Of a stretch of 64,000 bases of DNA, positions 23,059 through 33,831 are shown one piece after another. Under the pieces are notes generated by a model, which saw nothing but the letters and a program-made list of their open reading frames with translations, was not told where the DNA came from and did not search any database. Source of the DNA: Megamonas funiformis (GTDB taxonomy: Bacteria > Bacillota > Negativicutes > Selenomonadales > Selenomonadaceae); the NCBI RefSeq assembly GCF_010669225.1, contig NZ_CP048627.1, positions 620,001 to 684,000 on the forward strand. The letters run 5' to 3'. The stretch's first letter is position 1. Each line of letters starts with the position of its first letter. The translations under genes and the position numbers were made by a program.

Positions 23059-23337
23059 ATGTTCAATTTTGATTTACAGCTTTTCGCTCATAAAAAAGGT
23101 GTTAGTAGTACTCGTAACGGTCGTGATAGCGAATCTAAACGTCTTGGCGTTAAAGAACATGCTGGTACTATCGTTACTGCAGGTAGCATTTTAGTTCGTC
23201 AGAGAGGTACTCATTTCCATCCAGGTGCTAACGTAGGCATCGGTAAAGATGATACTTTATTCGCTAAAATTGCTGGTCGTGTTGCTTTCGAACGTAAAGG
23301 TCGTTACAACCGTCAAATCAGTGTATATGCTGAATAA
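23059..23337 (+). CDS. rpmA: 50S ribosomal protein L27 (with cleavable N-terminal extension)
   Basis: A 92-residue protein. After the 9-residue extension MFNFDLQLF comes the mature [18 protein letters not shown] typical of L27. The last four codons and stop lie inside the 43-bp left attachment repeat of the integrated element. Integration therefore left the protein sequence intact: the element restores the gene's 3' end. Confidence 0.96.
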
Positions 23338-23366
23338 TTAAGAAATAAAGTCGTAGCCTTTTATTA
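23324..23366 (+). repeat. Left attachment site repeat (attL)
   Basis: 43 bases identical to 33771-33813, beginning TATATGCTGAATAA. It covers the last codons and stop of rpmA and the left arm of its terminator. Flanking bases on either side differ, so the boundaries are exact. Confidence 0.92.
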
Positions 23367-23387
23367 TAAAGGGTTACGGCTTTTTTG
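23348..23387 (+). terminator. Terminator after rpmA (element-side copy)
   Basis: Stem AAGTCGTAGCC with GGTTACGGCTT, then TTTTTTGTTTTT. Its left arm lies in the attachment repeat; a second version stands at the right end of the element. Confidence 0.85.
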
Positions 23388-23397
23388 TTTTTATAAG

Positions 23398-23420
23398 CGT
23401 ACTAAAAACGTACTATTATA
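23398..23420 (+). repeat. Putative integrase arm-binding site, left end
   Basis: A 23-mer with two CGTACT units (CGTACTAAAAACGTACTATTA...). It matches 22 of 23 bases with 33653-33675 near the other end, in the same orientation. It sits 31 bases inside the left attachment repeat. Confidence 0.6.
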
Positions 23421-23427
23421 TTCAAGT

Positions 23428-24490
23428 TTATATATTTTGATGTAATTGTTGTAGTTTTTCAGCTAATTCATTTTGTTTATTTGGATATAAATGAGAATAG
23501 GTTTTTAAAGTTGTTTCAATTTTTTCATGTCCTAGACGTTCAGCAATCATCAATGGCGAATAACCTTGTTCAATCAATAGTGAAGCGTGGGAATGTCTAA
23601 AATCATGAATGCGAATAGTTTTTAATCCTACTAATTTAATATAATGTTTAAGCTTATTAAATAAAACAGTTGGCGAAACTTCAAATAATAAATCATGTGA
23701 TGTAATAAAATCTTTTTGAATATAATTTTTTACAATATCAACTAAAAATTTTGGTAGTGTGATAGTACGTTTACTCTTTTCAGTTTTTGGTGTGGTTATC
23801 ATTGGCTTGTAGTTTTGAATATAAACCATATTTCTAGTTATGTGTAATAGATTATTTTCAAAATCAAAATCACAAGGGCGAAGGGCTAACAGCTCGCCAC
23901 GTCGTATACCAGTCCAAAATAAAATATTAAATATAGTGTAATATGGTTCATCAGTATTAACTTTTTTTATAAATTGATTAAATTCGTCTAGTGTAAAAAA
24001 GTTTAACTCTTGACCTTTTTTCGAACCTATTGGGTCGCAAAGTTTAACAGGGTTTTTCGGCAAATTATAATATCTAACTGCAAAATTAAATATACAAGAT
24101 ATTTGAGTATTGATAGCCCTTAAATACTGATTAGCTTTAGAATTGGTATCATCTTTAATAGTACCATTGTCTAATATTGGTTGGTGTGATTTTATTTATG
24201 GCGGTATCTTTAAAATAAGGCAATACATATTTTTCAATGATAGTCGTTTTGGTGTATAAAGTAGATGCTTTTATTCTTGATTTACAATCATCTAAGTATA
24301 TAGCTACTAGCGAGCTAAATTTCATGTCGCAAGTTCCCGCCATACGTTCGAGAAATTCACGCTCAAAGGCTTGGGCTTCTCGTTTAGTGGTAAAGCCTTC
24401 TTTCTTCTTTTTCTTGCGTGTACCAGTCCAATCAGTATAATAAAAAGTCGTGAACCATGTTCCACGTTGTTCGTTTTTGTAAACAGGCAT
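23428..24490 (-). pseudogene. int: Tyrosine integrase of the element, single frameshift
   Basis: The N-terminal part (24490 to 24155) has the AP2-like arm-binding domain (MPVYKNEQRGTWFTTFYYTD...) and the start of the core-binding domain, ending ...NIRQWYY at a stop. The remainder continues one base out of frame (KDDTNSKANQYLRAIN...NFAVRYYNLPKNPVK) into the catalytic domain to 23428. There Arg in GIRRGELLAL, His and Arg in HDFRHSHASLL, His in LGHE and Tyr in TLKTYSHLYP are all present. Removing one base near 24155-24159 restores a full-length enzyme. The start is ATG at 24490 with GAAAGGAA upstream. It is likely inactive unless the shift is an error or is bypassed. Confidence 0.85.
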
Positions 24491-24578
24491 AAAAAAAATC
24501 ATTCCTTTCAAGCTAAAAAATCGTATACTTAATAAGCCTACCATTTACCAGCTTTAAAAAGAATGATATAATTTAGTT

Positions 24579-24679: not shown

Positions 24680-25081
24680 TTAGATTTTTTTTACATGGTC
24701 TTGTAGCCATTGTGTTAGTTCTTCACAACTCATTTTACTGGAAGCAATATCAATGATGATATTTTCTAATTCAATACTTTCATAATCCAATAAAATATCA
24801 TTGATGTATAAATAGACTAGCATACTGTGGATAGCAGTTCGTTTATTACCGTCATTGAATGGGTGATTTTTAGTCAATCCATAACAAAGTCTAGAAGCTT
24901 TATCAAATATTGTTGGATATAAATCTTGACCTGCAAAACTTTGAAATGGTGAATTTACTGCTGATTGAAGTAAATTCATATCATGGATACCGCTTTCCAT
25001 TCTATATCTATCAGTAAGTTGCTGATGAAAGTCTAAGATATCATCAAGTAAAATATTTATAATTTGTTTTTCTGTATTCAT
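24680..25081 (-). CDS. doc: Doc-type toxin (Fic/Doc fold)
   Basis: A 133-residue protein with the Doc variant of the Fic motif, HPFNDGNKRTA (around residues 71-81). The N-terminus DILDFHQQLTDRYRMESGIHD is typical of death-on-curing proteins. Doc phosphorylates elongation factor Tu in phage P1. It overlaps the small upstream gene by ATGA, the usual antitoxin-toxin coupling. It would stabilise the element after integration. Confidence 0.88.
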   Translation of the reverse strand: MNTEKQIINILLDDILDFHQQLTDRYRMESGIHDMNLLQSAVNSPFQSFAGQDLYPTIFDKASRLCYGLTKNHPFNDGNKRTAIHSMLVYLYINDILLDYESIELENIIIDIASSKMSCEELTQWLQDHVKKI

Positions 25082-25690: not shown

Positions 25691-26326
25691 CTATTTATTT
25701 TTTGACATATCATATTCATTATTTAGTTTTAATAATTGTTTATCTATACCTAAAAATTTGCTAAGTTCGTTTTGAATATTTAACATTTTTTGTATTTCTT
25801 TATTTTTTTCATCTATTGATAAATTAGTTTTATCAAAACAAATATCATCTATTCTACGGTCAGTTAAAATAATAATATTTAATATATAAGATGAGAATAA
25901 ACTTTTTTGGAAAATATTTTTTTTCTTGTCTTCCATTGTTTTATTTAACGCATTTATCGTTGAAACAATATGAGATTTATTAAGAGAAAAATTATAATTA
26001 AGTTCTAAAAACGAACAATAGATATTTTTTTCATCAATATTATTTATTACAACTCGTAAATTTTTTAATTCATTAGGATTTAATAAATCGTTAATTTCCT
26101 TTTTTAGTCGTTCATCTTCATCTGCTGGCGTTCGTCCTAGTAAATCATCTAGCGATACATTTAATAAATCAGCTATTTTTATTAGCATTTCTAGTTTTGG
26201 TTCTCTTTTTTGATTTTCATAAGCTGTATAAGTGTTGTATGGAACATCTAAAGCGTCAGCAAATTCCTTTGCTGTTGCATATCCCGCTCGTTCCCTATAA
26301 ATTCTTAGGTTTTTATCTAAATTCAT
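25691..26326 (-). CDS. Phage-type repressor (cI-like), XRE helix-turn-helix
   Basis: A 211-residue protein. The N-terminal XRE domain is clear (LRIYRERAGYATAKEFADALDVPYNTYTAYENQKREPKLEMLIKIADLLNVSLDDLLGR). The C-terminal part (from about residue 75) is charged and shows no peptidase S24 motif, so induction by RecA-mediated self-cleavage is not supported. Induction by a helper-phage antirepressor, as in satellites, would fit but is inference. It is divergent from the cro-like gene, with AGGAGG upstream of its ATG. Confidence 0.85.
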   Translation of the reverse strand: MNLDKNLRIYRERAGYATAKEFADALDVPYNTYTAYENQKREPKLEMLIKIADLLNVSLDDLLGRTPADEDERLKKEINDLLNPNELKNLRVVINNIDEKNIYCSFLELNYNFSLNKSHIVSTINALNKTMEDKKKNIFQKSLFSSYILNIIILTDRRIDDICFDKTNLSIDEKNKEIQKMLNIQNELSKFLGIDKQLLKLNNEYDMSKNK

Positions 26327-26352: not shown

Positions 26353-26475
26353 ATTATAATCCCTATTTTGTATTAAATCAATATATTTTTATAATACATT
26401 TTAGGGATTTACTTTAAATAATTAATGATTTATCATGATACATATAAGGGATAAAATCGATATTTATTCCCTAAT
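26353..26475. promoter_or_regulatory. Divergent control region of the element with repressor operators
   Basis: On the minus strand the cI promoter is TTGATT (26381-26376), 17 bases, TATAAT (26358-26353). Four copies of a TAGGGAT-type half-site lie in this region: 26359-26365 (inverted, in the promoter spacer), 26402-26408, 26447-26452 and 26467-26473 (inverted). They form two inverted pairs, as expected for cI/cro switching. The plus-strand promoter is less clear. Confidence 0.6.
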
Positions 26476-26497
26476 AAGTATGAAGAAGGTGGAAGAT

Positions 26498-26701
26498 GTG
26501 AAACTAGATAAAAGCAAATTAGAATTAGCTATGGCAGATAAATGTTATTCAAAAACTAGACTTGTAGCTAATGCAGGTATCTGCTATTCAAGTTTAATCA
26601 AGTTACTCAATGGCAGAATGAAATTAACGCCCCAAACACTAGGAAAAATAGCCAAAACGTTAGAGGTTAAACCAAAAGATTTATTAAAAGATGAGGACTA
26701 A
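26498..26701 (+). CDS. Cro-like XRE-family DNA-binding protein
   Basis: A 67-residue helix-turn-helix protein: MKLDKSKLELAMADKCYSKT...CYSSLIKLLNGRMKLTPQTLGKIAKTLEVKPKDLL. I choose GTG 26498 because GAAGGTGG lies upstream and the family begins MKLDK. An ATG at 26480 in frame has no ribosome binding site and would overlap the operator region. It is first in the plus-strand early operon and divergent from cI. Confidence 0.8.
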   Translation: MKLDKSKLELAMADKCYSKTRLVANAGICYSSLIKLLNGRMKLTPQTLGKIAKTLEVKPKDLLKDED

Positions 26702-26766: not shown

Positions 26767-27354
26767 ATGGATAATCAAAATAATTTGGTTCATATGTTCA
26801 AAAATCAAGTTGTTGTATCTAGTGTACAACTTGCAGAGCATTTTGACAAACGTCATTGTGATATTTTACGTTTACTCAACGCACTTCTGCGTTCAGCTAA
26901 TAAGCAAAGGCTTTCTAAGCACTTTTTTAAGTCGAATTATAAAGATGAAACAGGCAAAAATAACACTATGTATCTAATGGATAGGGACGGATTTAGCCTG
27001 CTTGTCATGAGTTTTAAGGGTGAAAAAGCTTTAAAGTGGAAGTTAGATTTTATTGATGCCTTCAATGCTATGGAGCAAGAAATAAGAAACAATGAACATA
27101 AATTAAATACTGATTTAAAAGATAAACTATATAATACATCAATCAAGCTTGAAAAGGTAAAAATACTTCATAATAGACTTTTTGAAGAAAGTACGAACCA
27201 ATCAGCGTTATTAAATGAAAAACGAGCTGAATTATTAAGATATAAAGCTTTTAGAGATTTAATAATAGCTAAACAGCTAGAAAATGACTCCGCTGGATTA
27301 TCATATGACGACGTTGATGAAATCGACAATAGAATTTTCGGCGAGATAGATTAA
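26767..27354 (+). CDS. Rha-family phage regulatory protein / antirepressor-like
   Basis: A 195-residue protein. The N-terminal Rha (pRha) domain spans residues 10-100: VVVSSVQLAEHFDKRHCDILR, FKSNYKDETGKNNTMYLMDRDGFSLLVMSF and GEKALKWKLDFIDAFNAME. A coiled-coil-like C-terminus follows (residues 105-170, rich in Lys, Glu and Leu). Rha proteins are lysogeny regulators found in temperate phages and islands. GAAAGGAAG precedes ATG 26767. A small hairpin (CCTAGA...TCTAGG) lies between cro and this gene. Confidence 0.8.
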   Translation: MDNQNNLVHMFKNQVVVSSVQLAEHFDKRHCDILRLLNALLRSANKQRLSKHFFKSNYKDETGKNNTMYLMDRDGFSLLVMSFKGEKALKWKLDFIDAFNAMEQEIRNNEHKLNTDLKDKLYNTSIKLEKVKILHNRLFEESTNQSALLNEKRAELLRYKAFRDLIIAKQLENDSAGLSYDDVDEIDNRIFGEID

Positions 27355-28174: not shown

Positions 28175-28519
28175 ATGAACAATAAATCAATACCGCCAAT
28201 CTATGAAAATTTTACACAGTTAAACAATGGAGAAATTCCACAGTTTGACTATATAAAAATATATCATTCATTCTTGAAATTGAAAGCAAATGAATTAATA
28301 TTGTTTTCTCTATTATATCAGGAATGCGAAGCAGATGCAGTATATAAAAAAGGATTAAATTATCTTTATAAACGGACTAATACAACTAAGCATACAGTTT
28401 TACGTTGTTTAAGTGTTCTCATTGATAGAAATTTGATTACAAAGAAGCAAGGCACGAACAGAAATCCTAGCGAATACCATATAAATTATCAAGTTTTACA
28501 GCAATATATAGACCAGTAG
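28175..28519 (+). CDS. Winged-helix replication-module protein
   Basis: A 114-residue protein with a winged-helix domain (LKLKANELILFSLLYQECEAD, then NTTKHTVLRCLSVLIDRNLITKKQ). It resembles the N-terminal part of the next gene's product (same ELILFSLL/ELHTLNLI and LRCLSVLID/LRILKSLTD segments), so the two may be related. It may be a replication accessory or regulator. AAGGAGATG precedes ATG 28175. Confidence 0.6.
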   Translation: MNNKSIPPIYENFTQLNNGEIPQFDYIKIYHSFLKLKANELILFSLLYQECEADAVYKKGLNYLYKRTNTTKHTVLRCLSVLIDRNLITKKQGTNRNPSEYHINYQVLQQYIDQ

Positions 28520-28535: not shown

Positions 28536-29525
28536 ATGGCGGGTGATGCAAAAGCTAACATTAACGAAAATATTAAAAAAGCTAATATAGATTATTTAAA
28601 GTCAACAACTTTTATTAAATATTATTTGCCTTTCTTCAAATTAGGTTTAAATGCTGATGAACTTCATACATTAAACCTAATATTTAGTTTTGAAGCAGAT
28701 AATAAAATATATATAGGTAGTTCAAAATATTTATGCGATATGTTAAATTACTCAAAACCTCGAGCTTTAAGAATTTTAAAAAGTTTAACCGATAAGGGTT
28801 ATTTAAAAAAAGAAGCTAGCAACGGTCGAATTAATAGCATATATAAAATAAATCATATGTTCTTATATCAGCAAATTAAAAACAATGAAAATTATTCACA
28901 GTTAGCTGATAATAAACAGTTACAAAATGTTACGGTTAACAGTAATAAAATGTTACGGTTAAATAATTCTAACAGTAACGAAACGTTACCGATACAGTTA
29001 CAAAATGTTACGGTTAACAGTAACGATTTATTACCCAATAAGAATATATATAAGAATAATAATAAGAATATATATGCTCATTTAGAAAATGAGCAAGTAT
29101 ATAATCACGAAGATGATAAACAAAAAGAAGATGATAACCATTCTTCTAATATCATAAAGCAGGATACTAAGAATAAGGCTATCAAAAAACAGAATAAAGA
29201 ACTAAATGAGTTGCAGGAAAAACAGTTTGATAAGTTTTGGCAAGCATACCCGAAAAAGGTAAGCAAGAAAGAAGCTCAAAAGTCATGGAATAAAATCAAT
29301 CCTTCTTTAGAGTTATTCGAGAAAATACTCAAGGCTTTAGAAATAGTCAAACAAACTGGACAATGGAATACAGACAATGGAAAATTTATTCCTTATCCTG
29401 CAACGTGGTTAAATCAAGAGCGGTGGACTGATGAAATAAAGATGATGCAGGATATTAAACCAGTGATTGAGCCAAAATTGAAAATAAAACCAGTTTATGA
29501 AAATATGTTGGAGAATGATTTTTAA
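28536..29525 (+). CDS. Phage replisome organizer / replication initiator
   Basis: A 329-residue protein in three parts. Residues 15-110 form a winged-helix DNA-binding domain (ADELHTLNLIFSF...YSKPRALRILKSLTDKGYLKKE). Residues about 120-225 are a low-complexity Asn-rich linker. The C-terminal domain (FDKFWQAYPKKVSKKEAQKSW...FIPYPATWLNQERWTDE) is typical of phage helicase-loader/replisome-organizer proteins. The linker DNA carries repeats that look like origin iterons. The helicase gene follows. Together they form a self-contained theta-replication module. Confidence 0.8.
   Translation: MAGDAKANINENIKKANIDYLKSTTFIKYYLPFFKLGLNADELHTLNLIFSFEADNKIYIGSSKYLCDMLNYSKPRALRILKSLTDKGYLKKEASNGRINSIYKINHMFLYQQIKNNENYSQLADNKQLQNVTVNSNKMLRLNNSNSNETLPIQLQNVTVNSNDLLPNKNIYKNNNKNIYAHLENEQVYNHEDDKQKEDDNHSSNIIKQDTKNKAIKKQNKELNELQEKQFDKFWQAYPKKVSKKEAQKSWNKINPSLELFEKILKALEIVKQTGQWNTDNGKFIPYPATWLNQERWTDEIKMMQDIKPVIEPKLKIKPVYENMLENDF
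28917..29023 (+). repeat. Iterons: probable replication origin inside the replisome organizer gene
   Basis: Two exact 29-base copies (28917-28945 and 28995-29023) contain the core ATGTTACGGTTAA; a third core is at 28950-28962. Between them is an inverted relative, ACGTTACCG, at about 28983-28991, plus GTTAAC/GTAAC dyads. At the protein level the repeat reads QLQNVTVNSN twice in a linker. Origins inside the initiator gene are well known in temperate phages of Firmicutes. Confidence 0.75.
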
Positions 29526-29676: not shown

Positions 29677-31008
29677 GTGAAAAATTTGAATGATAAAATA
29701 CCAATTAATATTGAAGCAGAACAAGCCGTATTAGGTGCAATTTTAATATCAAAAGATACATCAATGGCTATTGATGAAATAAATCTAAAAGTAGATGATT
29801 TCTACAGATCTAGTCATAGGATTATTTATAGAGCAATGTTAATGCTATTTAAAGCCAATAAGCCTATAGATAATTTAACTGTTATCGAATATCTAAATAA
29901 AACGAATGAACTCGAAAAAGCTGGCGGTATTGCATGCATAACAAGCTTAGTAAACTGTGTACCTTCAGCAAGCAATATAAAATATTATGCTGATATGGTA
30001 AAAGATACCGCCATAAGAAGGAAATATATTCAAGCGGGAGAGCAGATAAAAAACATAGCTTATAATGCTGAAAATATAGATAGTACAGTAAGTAAAACAG
30101 AGAAATTAATATTTGATATTTCAAAAGAAAATGTCTATAAGGGCGATATTATTGAACCTACTGATTTAATGATTGAATGTATGCAAGAAATAGAATATCA
30201 ATATGAACATAATAAAAATGGTGTATCGGGTATTGATACGGGTTATGTAGATTTAAATAAAATCACTGGCGGATTTCAAAATTCAGATTTTATTATCATA
30301 GGTGCAAGACCAGCAATGGGGAAAACAGCTCTTGTCTTAAGCATGGCTAGTAAGATTGCAAAGAAAAATATACCTGTAGCGGTGTTTTCTTTGGAAATGT
30401 CAAAAGCCCAACTCGGTAAAAGGCTAATTAGCGGGGCAAGTTGCGTTAATTCGCAAAAAATATCTACTGGTCGCTTAGATGAAAACGAATGGCAAAGAGT
30501 TATAAAAGCTACTGATATATTATCTAAAAGACCAATCTATATTGAAGATAGTGCAGAGATTAATATTTTGCAGTTGCGAAGTAAAGCAAGGCAATTAAAA
30601 AGACAAAAGGATATAAAACTTATTATCATAGACTATTTACAATTATTAGCATCTGAAAGAAAAAGAGATAATAAAGTTCAAGAAGTGTCTGATATATCAA
30701 GACAGTTAAAGATTTTAGCCAAAGAATTAAATATTCCAGTGATTGCCTTAGCTCAATTAAGTCGAAGCGTAGAAGCTAGACAAGATAAAAGACCTATGTT
30801 ATCGGATTTAAGGGAGTCAGGCTCAATTGAACAAGATGCGGATATAGTCATGTTCTTATATCGTGATGAATATTATAATGCTAATACAAATAATAAAAAT
30901 TTAGCTGAATTGATAATATCTAAACATAGAAACGGCTCAACGGGCAAAGTAAATTTATATTATCATCATGATTATTGTTTTTTTGATGATTGTATTATGG
31001 ATATTTAA
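29677..31008 (+). CDS. Replicative DNA helicase, DnaB family (element-encoded)
   Basis: A 443-residue hexameric helicase. The N-terminal domain begins IPINIEAEQAVLGAILI; the RecA-like domain has Walker A ARPAMGKTAL, Walker B LIIIDYLQLL, and FSLEMSKAQLGKRL. The start is uncertain: GTG 29677 is very close to its AAGGTC sequence, while TTG 29686 (giving MNDKIPINIE) has better spacing. It works with the preceding organizer to replicate the element independently of host DnaB. Confidence 0.9.
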   Translation: MKNLNDKIPINIEAEQAVLGAILISKDTSMAIDEINLKVDDFYRSSHRIIYRAMLMLFKANKPIDNLTVIEYLNKTNELEKAGGIACITSLVNCVPSASNIKYYADMVKDTAIRRKYIQAGEQIKNIAYNAENIDSTVSKTEKLIFDISKENVYKGDIIEPTDLMIECMQEIEYQYEHNKNGVSGIDTGYVDLNKITGGFQNSDFIIIGARPAMGKTALVLSMASKIAKKNIPVAVFSLEMSKAQLGKRLISGASCVNSQKISTGRLDENEWQRVIKATDILSKRPIYIEDSAEINILQLRSKARQLKRQKDIKLIIIDYLQLLASERKRDNKVQEVSDISRQLKILAKELNIPVIALAQLSRSVEARQDKRPMLSDLRESGSIEQDADIVMFLYRDEYYNANTNNKNLAELIISKHRNGSTGKVNLYYHHDYCFFDDCIMDI

Positions 31009-31711: not shown

Positions 31712-32107
31712 ATGAATATAGCTAAAAAATATCTTGAACAGGCATATATTGGATATCATAGAATAATATGTTATGACTTAATGATAAAGGGCATACAAGA
31801 GGATTTATCTAAGTTTAACAATGATAAAATTATTATACCTAGATTAAAAGCTGAACTAATAAGCTATGAAAAACAAAGAAGATATTGGCTAAATAAAAGA
31901 ATAGAATTAAAACAGTTTATTATAAATTTAAATATTAAAGATAAAATAAAACAAGTTCTAATACTTAGATTTATTGAGTTAAAGAAAAGACGTGAAATAA
32001 GTGATATATTACATTATTCATTATCATATATTGATAGATTATTAAAACGAGGCTTATTTTTTATTGATGAAAAACTAAAATCTAGTAGTCAAAAAGTTGT
32101 CATTTAG
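31712..32107 (+). CDS. Sigma-like late transcription regulator (DUF1492/ArpU-like)
   Basis: A 131-residue basic protein. The N-terminal half is a long helical segment (residues 1-75). The C-terminal half looks like a region-4-type helix-turn-helix: KQVLILRFIELKKRREISDILHYSLSYIDRLLKRGLFFI. In phages such proteins sit between replication and packaging genes and switch on late transcription. Here no late genes follow, which suggests it acts in trans, on the CRISPR region, or is a relic. Confidence 0.65.
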   Translation: MNIAKKYLEQAYIGYHRIICYDLMIKGIQEDLSKFNNDKIIIPRLKAELISYEKQRRYWLNKRIELKQFIINLNIKDKIKQVLILRFIELKKRREISDILHYSLSYIDRLLKRGLFFIDEKLKSSSQKVVI

Positions 32108-32577
32108 TTGTCAGTTTTAACAATAAAAGGTTGCAAAAAGATTACAACTAAAACTATTGAAAATAAGACGTTTTTTATAATTTGATAGTCTAGAAAAACC
32201 TAGAATAATGAACATATAAACAGATTTATTGGCGGTCAAATAATGATATGAAATGTACCCCAAAGGTGCATCTTAAACAAAACAAAAAATGTCCAAAACA
32301 AAACGAAAAAGGTCCCAAAAAGGTACTGAAACAAAACAACCTAAAACGAATATGAAAAACCGCCATAAGCCTTGATAATAAAAGGTTTATATGTATTGGA
32401 AAAGGTTCAAAAATTATATAAAAAGGTTTAAAAAAATGATACGAAACAAAACGAAAATTGAACCTTTTTTTCAACTCTAATTAAGGCTTTAAAAGATATG
32501 TAAAAATTATATAAGCGTTCATCAGAGTGAGTCTATTTTATAGATATTACAAAAGCTAGTAATTTTATAAAATGGTC
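32108..32577. other. Non-coding tract with repeated AAACAAAAC and AAAGGT motifs
   Basis: AAACAAAAC occurs at 32275-32283, 32296-32304, 32329-32337 and 32444-32452. AAAGGT or AAAAGGTT occurs at least six times between 32262 and 32428. An inverted repeat AAAGGTTCAA / TTGAACCTTT spans about 32401 to 32467 and is followed by Ts. A minus-strand open frame here is only low-complexity Phe/Leu. It may be a regulatory or packaging-related site; I cannot assign it. Confidence 0.45.
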
Positions 32578-32679
32578 ATGAGGAATATTATAAAAATAGG
32601 TGATTTTGTAATAACTAAGAATATCGCCAAAGATGATGACTATTTCTGTAAAATAAAAAAAGCTGGTGCAGTCATTTAA
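32578..32679 (+). CDS. Possible 33-residue peptide before the CRISPR leader
   Basis: ATG 32578 to TAA 32679 encodes MRNIIKIGDFVITKNIAKDD... ending KAGAVI. It looks protein-like (IKIGDFVITKN) but is short, lacks a clear ribosome binding site, and overlaps a terminator hairpin. Low confidence. Confidence 0.25.
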   Translation: MRNIIKIGDFVITKNIAKDDDYFCKIKKAGAVI

Positions 32680-32697
32680 AACTACATCAGCTTTTAA
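32652..32697 (+). terminator. Hairpin terminator upstream of the CRISPR leader
   Basis: AAAAGCTGGTGCAGT (32658-32672) pairs with ACTACATCAGCTTTT (32681-32695), with one mismatch and one wobble. It insulates the CRISPR array from upstream transcription. Confidence 0.65.
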
Positions 32698-32971
32698 GAT
32701 AATGAGATTATTTATAGTATATATCGTATCATTTTAACTTTGGTATCAATCAATGAAAAATTTAAATTAATGGTGGCTCAATATTACTATGTTAATTGAT
32801 GATGCACATATTTTACCAGCTAATTTTTTATAAAATCTTAATAACTACTGTGATTACTAACTTTATAGATTTATAACCAATATTTGCCATTTGCTGGTAA
32901 ATCTTTTTAAAGTCTTGCAATATTAATAGTTTATAACTATAATGTAATTAATAAATCCTAATAACATTAGG
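32698..32971 (+). promoter_or_regulatory. CRISPR leader with consensus promoter
   Basis: An AT-rich non-coding stretch directly before the first repeat. TTGCAA (32915-32920), 17 bases and TATAAT (32938-32943) form a strong promoter whose start would be near 32950, about 22 bases before repeat 1. A 9-bp inverted repeat TTTACCAGC (32812-32820) / GCTGGTAAA (32893-32901) lies upstream; the same TTTACCAGC appears near the int gene (24544-24552). Confidence 0.65.
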
Positions 32972-33528
32972 GATAAATATCAACAGGTGCTGTACGAAAA
33001 CAATTTTTTAGAAAATCCATTTAGAGAATACATATTAGATAAATATCAACAGGTGCTGTACGAAAACGCAGGAATATTTTCTTTTATTCTTTGTAAAATA
33101 CCAGATAAATATCAACAGGTGCTGTACGAAAACTTAGGTGTTCATGCTTCTAATCCTATGCACCAATTGATAAATATCAACAGGTGCTGTACGAAAACGC
33201 CATTAATCATTACCACCTTAATATCACTATTATTGGATAAATATCAACAGGTGCTGTACGAAAACGTAAGTTCACCGCCACCTATTACAAAACCGATAAC
33301 GGATAAATATCAACAGGTGCTGTACGAAAACCACTTTTTAAATATATGCAAGTGTTTTTTTTATTAGATAAATATCAACAGGTGCTGTACGAAAACCTAC
33401 AATACTTTACACGACTATTATTAGTGATAAATGATAAATATCAACAGGTGCTGTACGAATACCCTATACAATCATAATCTTCATTGGCACATACCCATGA
33501 TAAATATCAACAGATACTGTATAAAGAA
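32972..33528 (+). CRISPR. CRISPR array of nine repeats, no cas genes nearby
   Basis: Repeats of 30 bases (begin GATAAATATCAACAGGTGCT, end GTACGAAAAC) start at 32972, 33038, 33104, 33169, 33236, 33302, 33367, 33433 and 33499. The eight spacers are 35-37 bases and all different. Repeats 1-7 are identical; repeat 8 has one change and repeat 9 about six, marking the right side as the old, leader-distal end. The promoter on the left agrees with this. Repeat plus spacer length fits class 1 systems (type I-B or III range) better than type II, but the type is not determined. No cas gene is in the window. Confidence 0.9.
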
Positions 33529-33551
33529 AATTGAATATGTATTATTTGGAG

Positions 33552-33586
33552 TATGGCGGTTATTAATAAAAATACCGCCATATTTT
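33552..33586 (+). terminator. Terminator downstream of the CRISPR array
   Basis: TATGGCGGTTATT pairs with AATACCGCCATA (33571-33582) and is followed by TTTT. It would end the pre-crRNA about 24 bases after the last repeat. Confidence 0.75.
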
Positions 33587-33652
33587 GATATATAACTATT
33601 AGTCAAAACTAATTGATATCTTGTTATATTCATATATGGCGGTTAAAATTAA

Positions 33653-33675
33653 CGTACTGAAAACGTACTATTATA
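33653..33675 (+). repeat. Putative integrase arm-binding site, right end
   Basis: Matches the left-end site at 23398-23420 in 22 of 23 bases, same orientation, with two CGTACT units. It lies 95 bases inside the right attachment repeat. Confidence 0.6.
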
Positions 33676-33770
33676 AAAAGAACAGAAAAAAATAGAAATA
33701 TTTAAATATAAAATAGCCTATATTATATAGGAAGGAAAAAGATAAAAATAAGGTGAAATTTGATTAAAAA

Positions 33771-33813
33771 TATATGCTGAATAATTAAGAAATAAAGTCG
33801 TAGCCTTTTATTA
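33771..33813 (+). repeat. Right attachment site repeat (attR)
   Basis: Identical over 43 bases to 23324-23366, including the vestigial last codons of rpmA (TATGCTGAATAA). Confidence 0.92.
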
Positions 33814-33831
33814 AAAGGTTGCGGCTTTTTG
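33795..33831 (+). terminator. Displaced original rpmA terminator
   Basis: AAGTCGTAGCC pairs with GGTTGCGGCTT, then TTTGTTTT. It is the chromosomal-side counterpart of the terminator at 23348-23387. Between here and the ilvE promoter (33832-34004) the sequence is AT-rich with no gene. Confidence 0.8.

What the first reader, a model, noticed from the sequence alone, without database searches (positions are those of the whole stretch)
32972..33528. A cas-less CRISPR array carried by a phage-satellite-like element
Seen: nine 30-base repeats, eight unique 35-37-base spacers, located 243 bases inside the right attachment repeat of a 10.4 kb integrated element that has no cas gene; none is in the 64 kb window. 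Known: some phages and islands carry short CRISPR arrays used by host Cas proteins against competitors. Inference: the element borrows host Cas proteins and aims the spacers at rival phages, its helper, or other satellites. A satellite with its own portable array would be an unusual and possibly undescribed arrangement.
Basis: partly seen in the sequence, partly recalled or inferred. Interest (0 to 1): 0.88.

Follow-up and report, generated by a model that had tools for sequence, protein, structure and literature searches.

The report
CRISPR guide array on mobile element
A small phage-like DNA element in a gut-type bacterium carries a list of CRISPR guide sequences but no CRISPR proteins, and its host, far away on the chromosome, keeps the matching kind of cutting proteins with no working guide list of its own, so the two may complete each other; what the guides aim at, and whether the two halves really fit, is unknown.

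Summary
The array is real: nine 30-nt repeats (seven identical, one with 1 mismatch, one decayed at the distal end) and eight unique 35-37-nt spacers at 32972-33528, inside a 10.5-kb element bounded by 46-bp attachment repeats. No cas gene lies in the element or window, but the host genome is not cas-less. About 71 kb from the array is an intact type I-B effector operon (cas6-cas8b-cas7-cas5-cas3) that has lost cas4-cas1-cas2 and keeps only two decayed repeats; a congener has the complete locus with a 21-repeat array. The element's leader, with its promoter, is homologous to the congener's I-B leader (36/60 in register; none of about 250,000 control windows as good), but the repeats match at only 16/30. 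The host also has a second, lone Cas6. Most likely the array is a type I-B guide cassette meant to use host Cas proteins; whether this host's Cas6/Cascade accepts the divergent repeat is open. No spacer target was found, so 'aims at rival phages' is untested. The element is satellite-like, but no packaging gene was found and its integrase is frameshifted, so it may be a prophage remnant. Closest precedent: Clostridioides difficile prophage arrays with partial I-B operons.

The parts
23324..23369 (.). left attachment repeat; overlaps the end of rpmA and its terminator
   Evidence: 46-bp direct repeat with 33771-33816, 1 mismatch; rpmA ends at 23337
23393..23420 (.). inner direct repeat at left end, possible integrase arm site
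   Evidence: 89% identical to 33648-33675; role inferred from position
23428..24063 (-). tyrosine integrase, C-terminal part (separated from N-terminal part by a frameshift)
   Evidence: PF00589 E 3e-23, phrog_1 2e-52; frames
24155..24544 (-). tyrosine integrase, N-terminal part
   Evidence: PF14659, PF14657; frame change
24680..25081 (-). Fic/Doc-family toxin-like protein
   Evidence: PF02661 2.5e-18, phrog_577 Doc-like
25691..26326 (-). CI-like repressor
   Evidence: HTH_3 7.7e-14, phrog_8
26435..26701 (+). Cro/C1-type regulator
   Evidence: PF13443 1.6e-9
26767..27354 (+). Rha-like antirepressor/regulator
   Evidence: PF09669 6.6e-25, phrog_518
28175..28519 (+). DnaD/replication-initiator-like protein (weak)
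   Evidence: phrog_428/186 E about 1e-3
28536..29525 (+). replication initiation protein, containing iteron-like repeats at 28914-29035
   Evidence: phrog_270 9e-30; repeats D2/D3
29677..31008 (+). DnaB-like replicative helicase
   Evidence: PF03796 2e-107, phrog_19 7e-120
31712..32107 (+). sigma-70 region 4-like protein, possibly a late transcription regulator (weak)
   Evidence: PF04545 and phrog_36, E about 4e-3
32912..32971 (+). CRISPR leader; promoter-like TTGCAA-17-TATAAT at 32915-32943
   Evidence: 36/60 identical in register to the leader of congener G038's type I-B array, 0 of 250,523 control windows as good; promoter 10/12
32972..33528 (+). CRISPR array: nine 30-nt repeats, eight spacers; degenerate end on the right, leader on the left
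33648..33675 (.). inner direct repeat at right end, possible integrase arm site
33771..33816 (.). right attachment repeat

Best explanation
The feature is a genuine, leader-driven type I-B CRISPR array carried as a guide-only cassette by a small integrase-type, phage-derived element. Shown: array, leader homology and promoter-like site; absence of cas genes in the element; an intact I-B effector operon elsewhere in the same chromosome that has lost its adaptation genes and its own array. Inferred: the array is transcribed from its leader; a host Cas6 (operon copy or the second, lone copy) cuts the pre-crRNA at the repeat; the crRNAs load onto host Cas8b/7/5 and direct Cas3 against incoming DNA, so element and effector operon complete each other in trans. 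Spacers were acquired earlier, in a cell that still had Cas1-Cas2-Cas4; in this strain the array is frozen. The targets are unknown.
For: Array geometry, seven perfect repeats and decay only at the leader-distal end. Operon G000:C1:724032-730989: Cas6 TIGR01877 1.6e-23 and PADLOC Cas6b 4.7e-96, Cas8b 1.4e-171, Cas7b 3.2e-41, Cas5b TIGR02592 1.4e-52, Cas3b 1.1e-270, each over nearly the whole profile. No Cas1 in the genome; only two decayed repeats, 25/30 to the congener's repeat, follow cas3; the congener's repeat is absent from this genome. The congener locus is complete: cas6-8b-7-5-3-4-1-2 plus 21 repeats. Leader homology 36/60 in register, leader plus repeat 52/90, no control window as good; -35 and -10 hexamers aligned in register in both. 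Repeat length and spacer spacing match the congener's I-B array. Precedents for arrays on mobile elements using host Cas: PMC6079278, PMC6858448, PMC11656645.
Against: Repeat identity to the congener's is only 16/30 (composition-shuffle p 0.002, but 1630 of 231,552 host windows do as well), and the predicted 8-nt handle agrees at 2 of 8 positions (ACGAAAAC vs TTTTGAAT); viral mini-arrays normally have the host's own repeat. The repeat hairpin is no stronger than in shuffles. No protospacer was found. There are no expression data. The integrase is frameshifted, so the element may be decaying.
Confidence: 0.45

Rival explanations
1. Silent passenger: the array was built in another host whose I-B system used this repeat; in the present host neither Cas6 nor Cascade recognises it, no Cas1 can extend it, and it is a fossil in a decaying element.
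For: Repeat is 16/30 to the congener's and handle 2/8; found in none of the other 379 class genomes at 3 mismatches and, as an 18-base core, only as single chance hits among 84,980 species genomes; integrase frameshift; no Cas1.
Against: Seven repeats and the promoter-like leader are intact; the leader is clearly of the genus I-B lineage; a second Cas6 of unknown specificity exists.
Confidence: 0.35
2. About the carrier, not the array's function, so not exclusive with the above: the element is a prophage remnant, not a satellite. A full prophage carried an array of the genus I-B type, as C. difficile prophages do, and has lost its structural genes.
For: Gene order int-repressor-Cro-Rha-Rep-DnaB-regulator is the early region of a temperate phage; no terminase, capsid or interference gene; 1.6 kb without convincing genes before attR; broken integrase.
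Against: Compact, both att repeats nearly perfect; no remnant of late genes recognised.
Confidence: 0.4
3. Decoy: the repeats are transcribed to occupy host Cas6/Cascade (RNA anti-CRISPR) and protect the element from the host system, the spacers being incidental.
For: RNA anti-CRISPRs carried by phages are known (PMC10651486, as summarised in PMC11656645).
Against: Those are single repeats mimicking the host repeat; here are nine repeats, a leader and unique spacers, and the repeat diverges from the host's.
Confidence: 0.07
4. Not CRISPR: iterons or a protein-coding tandem repeat.
For: The element has replication genes; an accidental ORF spans part of the array.
Against: Unique spacers with 35- and 37-nt members that break the frame; homologous CRISPR leader; distal repeat decay; iteron-like repeats lie elsewhere, in the rep gene.
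Confidence: 0.02

Closest known systems
Clostridioides difficile prophage-located CRISPR arrays with type I-B Cas (Boudry 2015, Hargreaves 2014, as reviewed in PMC6079278)
   Same: Cas-less arrays inside prophages, chromosomal I-B operons in trans, additional partial operons (cas6-8b-7-5-3) lacking the adaptation genes
   Different: Here the element has no structural genes, no other working array of this or the congener's repeat type was found, and the repeat has diverged from the congener's repeat and from the decayed repeats beside the host operon; expression and targets are known for C. difficile, not here
Virus-borne mini-CRISPR arrays of Sulfolobales viruses SPV1/SPV2 (PMC6858448)
   Same: Leader-preceded cas-less array on a mobile element, leader similar to host leaders
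   Different: 1-2 spacers with known viral targets and near-host repeats there; eight spacers, no known target and a divergent repeat here
Type I-B CRISPR-Cas locus of the congener G038
   Same: 30-nt repeat, about 66-nt period, homologous leader with aligned promoter; its cas effector genes are orthologous to this host's
   Different: Array sits beside cas4-cas1-cas2 on the chromosome, not on an element; repeat 16/30 identical
Phage satellites (PICI-like)
   Same: About 10 kb, att repeats, integrase, repressor/Cro switch, own replication genes, no structural genes
   Different: No packaging, capsid-remodelling or helper-interference gene recognised; integrase broken; no related satellites found

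Membership tests
CRISPR array | Near-identical repeats separated by unique spacers of near-constant length | tested here: met
CRISPR array | Leader on one side, repeat decay on the other | tested here: met
   Degenerate copy 9 at right; leader homologous to a I-B leader at left
CRISPR array | Spacers match mobile elements | tested here: inconclusive
   No match: array vs phages, plasmids and 189 family genomes; seeds of spacers 2-5, 7, 8 in IMG/VR
Type I-B CRISPR-Cas system | cas8b with cas5-cas7-cas3-cas6 in the same cell | tested here: met
   (about 71 kb from the array)
Type I-B CRISPR-Cas system | Array linked to, or with the same repeat as, the cas locus | tested here: not met
   Host locus keeps two decayed repeats of another sequence; element repeat 16/30 to the congener repeat
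Type I-B CRISPR-Cas system | Adaptation genes cas1-cas2-cas4 | tested here: not met
   No PF01867 match in the genome; none after cas3; present in congener
Type I-B CRISPR-Cas system | crRNA processing and interference | not testable with these tools
   Needs RNA and transformation assays
Phage-borne cas-less (mini-)array using host Cas | Located within a mobile element without cas genes | tested here: met
Phage-borne cas-less (mini-)array using host Cas | Repeats (near-)identical to host repeats | tested here: not met
Phage-borne cas-less (mini-)array using host Cas | Spacers target related viruses | tested here: inconclusive
   No targets found
Phage satellite | Integrase and att sites, no structural genes | tested here: met
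   integrase frameshifted
Phage satellite | Hijacks helper phage packaging | not testable with these tools
   No packaging or interference gene recognised; needs induction experiments

The most novel reading that the evidence does not exclude
A split CRISPR system in which a mobile satellite-like element supplies a guide array with its own repeat type, and the host supplies an effector operon that has no array, linked by a lone second Cas6 specific for the element's repeat.
Probability: 0.13. Interest if true: 0.75.

Novelty: new variant of a known kind. Interest (0 to 1): 0.5.

Why it matters
If the array works, immunity of this strain depends on a mobile element: losing or gaining the element switches the host's guide repertoire, and an effector operon without its own array would be maintained by parasite-borne guides. 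It gives a clean test of whether array-less cas operons are kept alive by guides from mobile elements.

Tried and rejected
PF10040 (Cas6), PF03787 (RAMP) and PF01867 (Cas1) were negative in the own genome and would have suggested a cas-less host; a sub-threshold Cas5 hit led to the real operon, so PF10040 is not a safe negative for this Cas6. The one IMG/VR contig with the repeat (L009) is 100% identical to the window over 7,314 bases, so it is the same or a near-identical strain and no independent evidence. Single matches to the repeat core in six unrelated genomes are taken as chance. Rfam: nothing relevant. Resemblance of the congener repeat to an iteron-like repeat in the element's rep gene: not clearly above chance. 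Empty-site comparison failed, because the similarity to the congener stops within the left repeat and its right flank is not the window's. The gapped leader alignment alone was weaker (44 of 5,352 controls as good); the in-register comparison is the strong one.

Full report
Observation. Copies 1-7 are identical; decay is confined to the right end (copy 8 has 1 mismatch, copy 9 a degraded 3' half), which sets the orientation: leader at left, transcription to the right. It lies inside an element bounded by 46-bp direct repeats (23324-23369 / 33771-33816), the left one at the end of rpmA, with a further direct-repeat pair just inside both ends. The element encodes a tyrosine integrase, Fic/Doc protein, CI-like repressor, Cro, Rha, replication initiator, DnaB and a weak sigma-70-region-4-like protein. 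No structural or packaging gene was recognised. The integrase is split in two frames, so mobility is doubtful.

Does the host have Cas proteins? Yes. The window is G000:C1:620001-684000 of a two-contig, 2.57-Mb genome. Searches for Cas1, one Cas6 family and RAMPs were empty, but a sub-threshold Cas5 hit at 727.5 kb led to an operon at 724032-730989 (about 71 kb from the array) encoding Cas6, Cas8b, Cas7b, Cas5b and Cas3 with near full-length matches. It is type I-B. It ends after cas3: there is no cas4, cas1 or cas2, and only two decayed repeats remain. The only congener held, G038, has the same locus complete, with cas4-cas1-cas2 and a 21-repeat array of GATTAACAGTAACAAACGTTGTTTTTGAAT; Cas6, Cas8b, Cas7, Cas5 and Cas3 are 86, 69, 78, 75 and 56% identical between the two. 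So this host has kept interference genes and lost adaptation genes and array.

Is the element's array of this lineage? The 60 bases before the first repeat match the congener's leader at 36 positions without gaps and in register with the repeat boundary; none of 250,523 AT-rich control windows reached this (maximum 35, and that best control is the host's own remnant leader region, a useful positive control); leader plus repeat gives 52/90 with no control as good. The promoter-like hexamers (TTGCAA-17-TATAAT here; TTGAAA-17-TATATT in the congener) are aligned. The controls overlap one another, so the count is not a strict p-value. The repeat itself is only 16/30 identical, which is weak alone. 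Both repeats can form a small hairpin at the same positions with an 8-nt tail, but neither folds better than shuffles, so this is a lead only. I conclude that the leader is homologous and the array of type I-B descent; repeat compatibility is open.

A second Cas6. The genome holds a lone Cas6 at 1076380-1077126 (54% identical to the operon copy), between glyS and FHA/phosphatase genes with no other cas gene or array nearby. It could serve the divergent repeat; that is speculation. Whether the congener also has it could not be checked.

Distribution and targets. The repeat (up to 3 mismatches) is in no other genome among the 189 of the family or 380 of the class that were searched; in IMG/VR only in an identical contig; in 84,980 species genomes only as single core matches. 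One genome per species is held, so strain variation is unseen. No spacer matched phages, plasmids, family genomes or the host's own sequence beyond chance, and seeds of six spacers had no hit in IMG/VR other than the identical contig. Spacers 1 and 6, AT-rich, were not scanned there.

Mechanism. Most likely a guide-only cassette used in trans by host I-B effectors (0.45), acquired when a host with cas1-cas2-cas4 was available and now frozen. The main rival is a silent passenger with a repeat foreign to this host (0.35). Independently of function, the element may be a prophage remnant rather than a satellite.

Known systems. C. difficile has several prophage-located arrays, expressed, with I-B operons including partial ones without adaptation genes (PMC6079278); archaeal viruses carry leader-preceded cas-less mini-arrays that use host Cas (PMC6858448), generally with the host's repeats (PMC11656645). 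Searches for satellite-borne arrays in the literature held found no described case, which does not prove absence. The differences here - satellite-like carrier, divergent repeat, array-less host operon, second Cas6 - make it a variant of a known kind.

Noticed in passing
L084:14380-15126 (G000:C1:1076380-1077126): Lone second Cas6, 248 aa, between glyS and FHA/PP2C genes, no other cas or array nearby.
   Followed up: partly
L042:9032-15989, 16095 and 16161 (G000:C1:724032-731190): Type I-B effector operon without adaptation genes; two decayed repeats of the congener's type remain.
   Followed up: yes
window 28914-29035: Iteron-like repeats inside the replication initiator gene, probably the element's origin.
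   Followed up: no
window 23428-24544: Integrase gene split in two reading frames; real mutation or sequencing error not distinguished.
   Followed up: partly
L076-L078 (from about G000:C1:1337 kb): A larger prophage-like region in the same genome, with integrase and a replication protein 43% identical over part to the element's; possible helper. No spacer matches it.
   Followed up: partly
L086-L088 (G000:C2, 46,189 bases): Second contig, apparently a conjugative plasmid (transfer-like ORFs, judged by eye); no array, no Cas hits, no match among plasmid records for the 20 kb tested.
   Followed up: partly
window 32108-33770: Over 1.6 kb without convincing genes at the right end of the element, holding the array and, at 32541-32617, an imperfect inverted repeat.
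   Followed up: no
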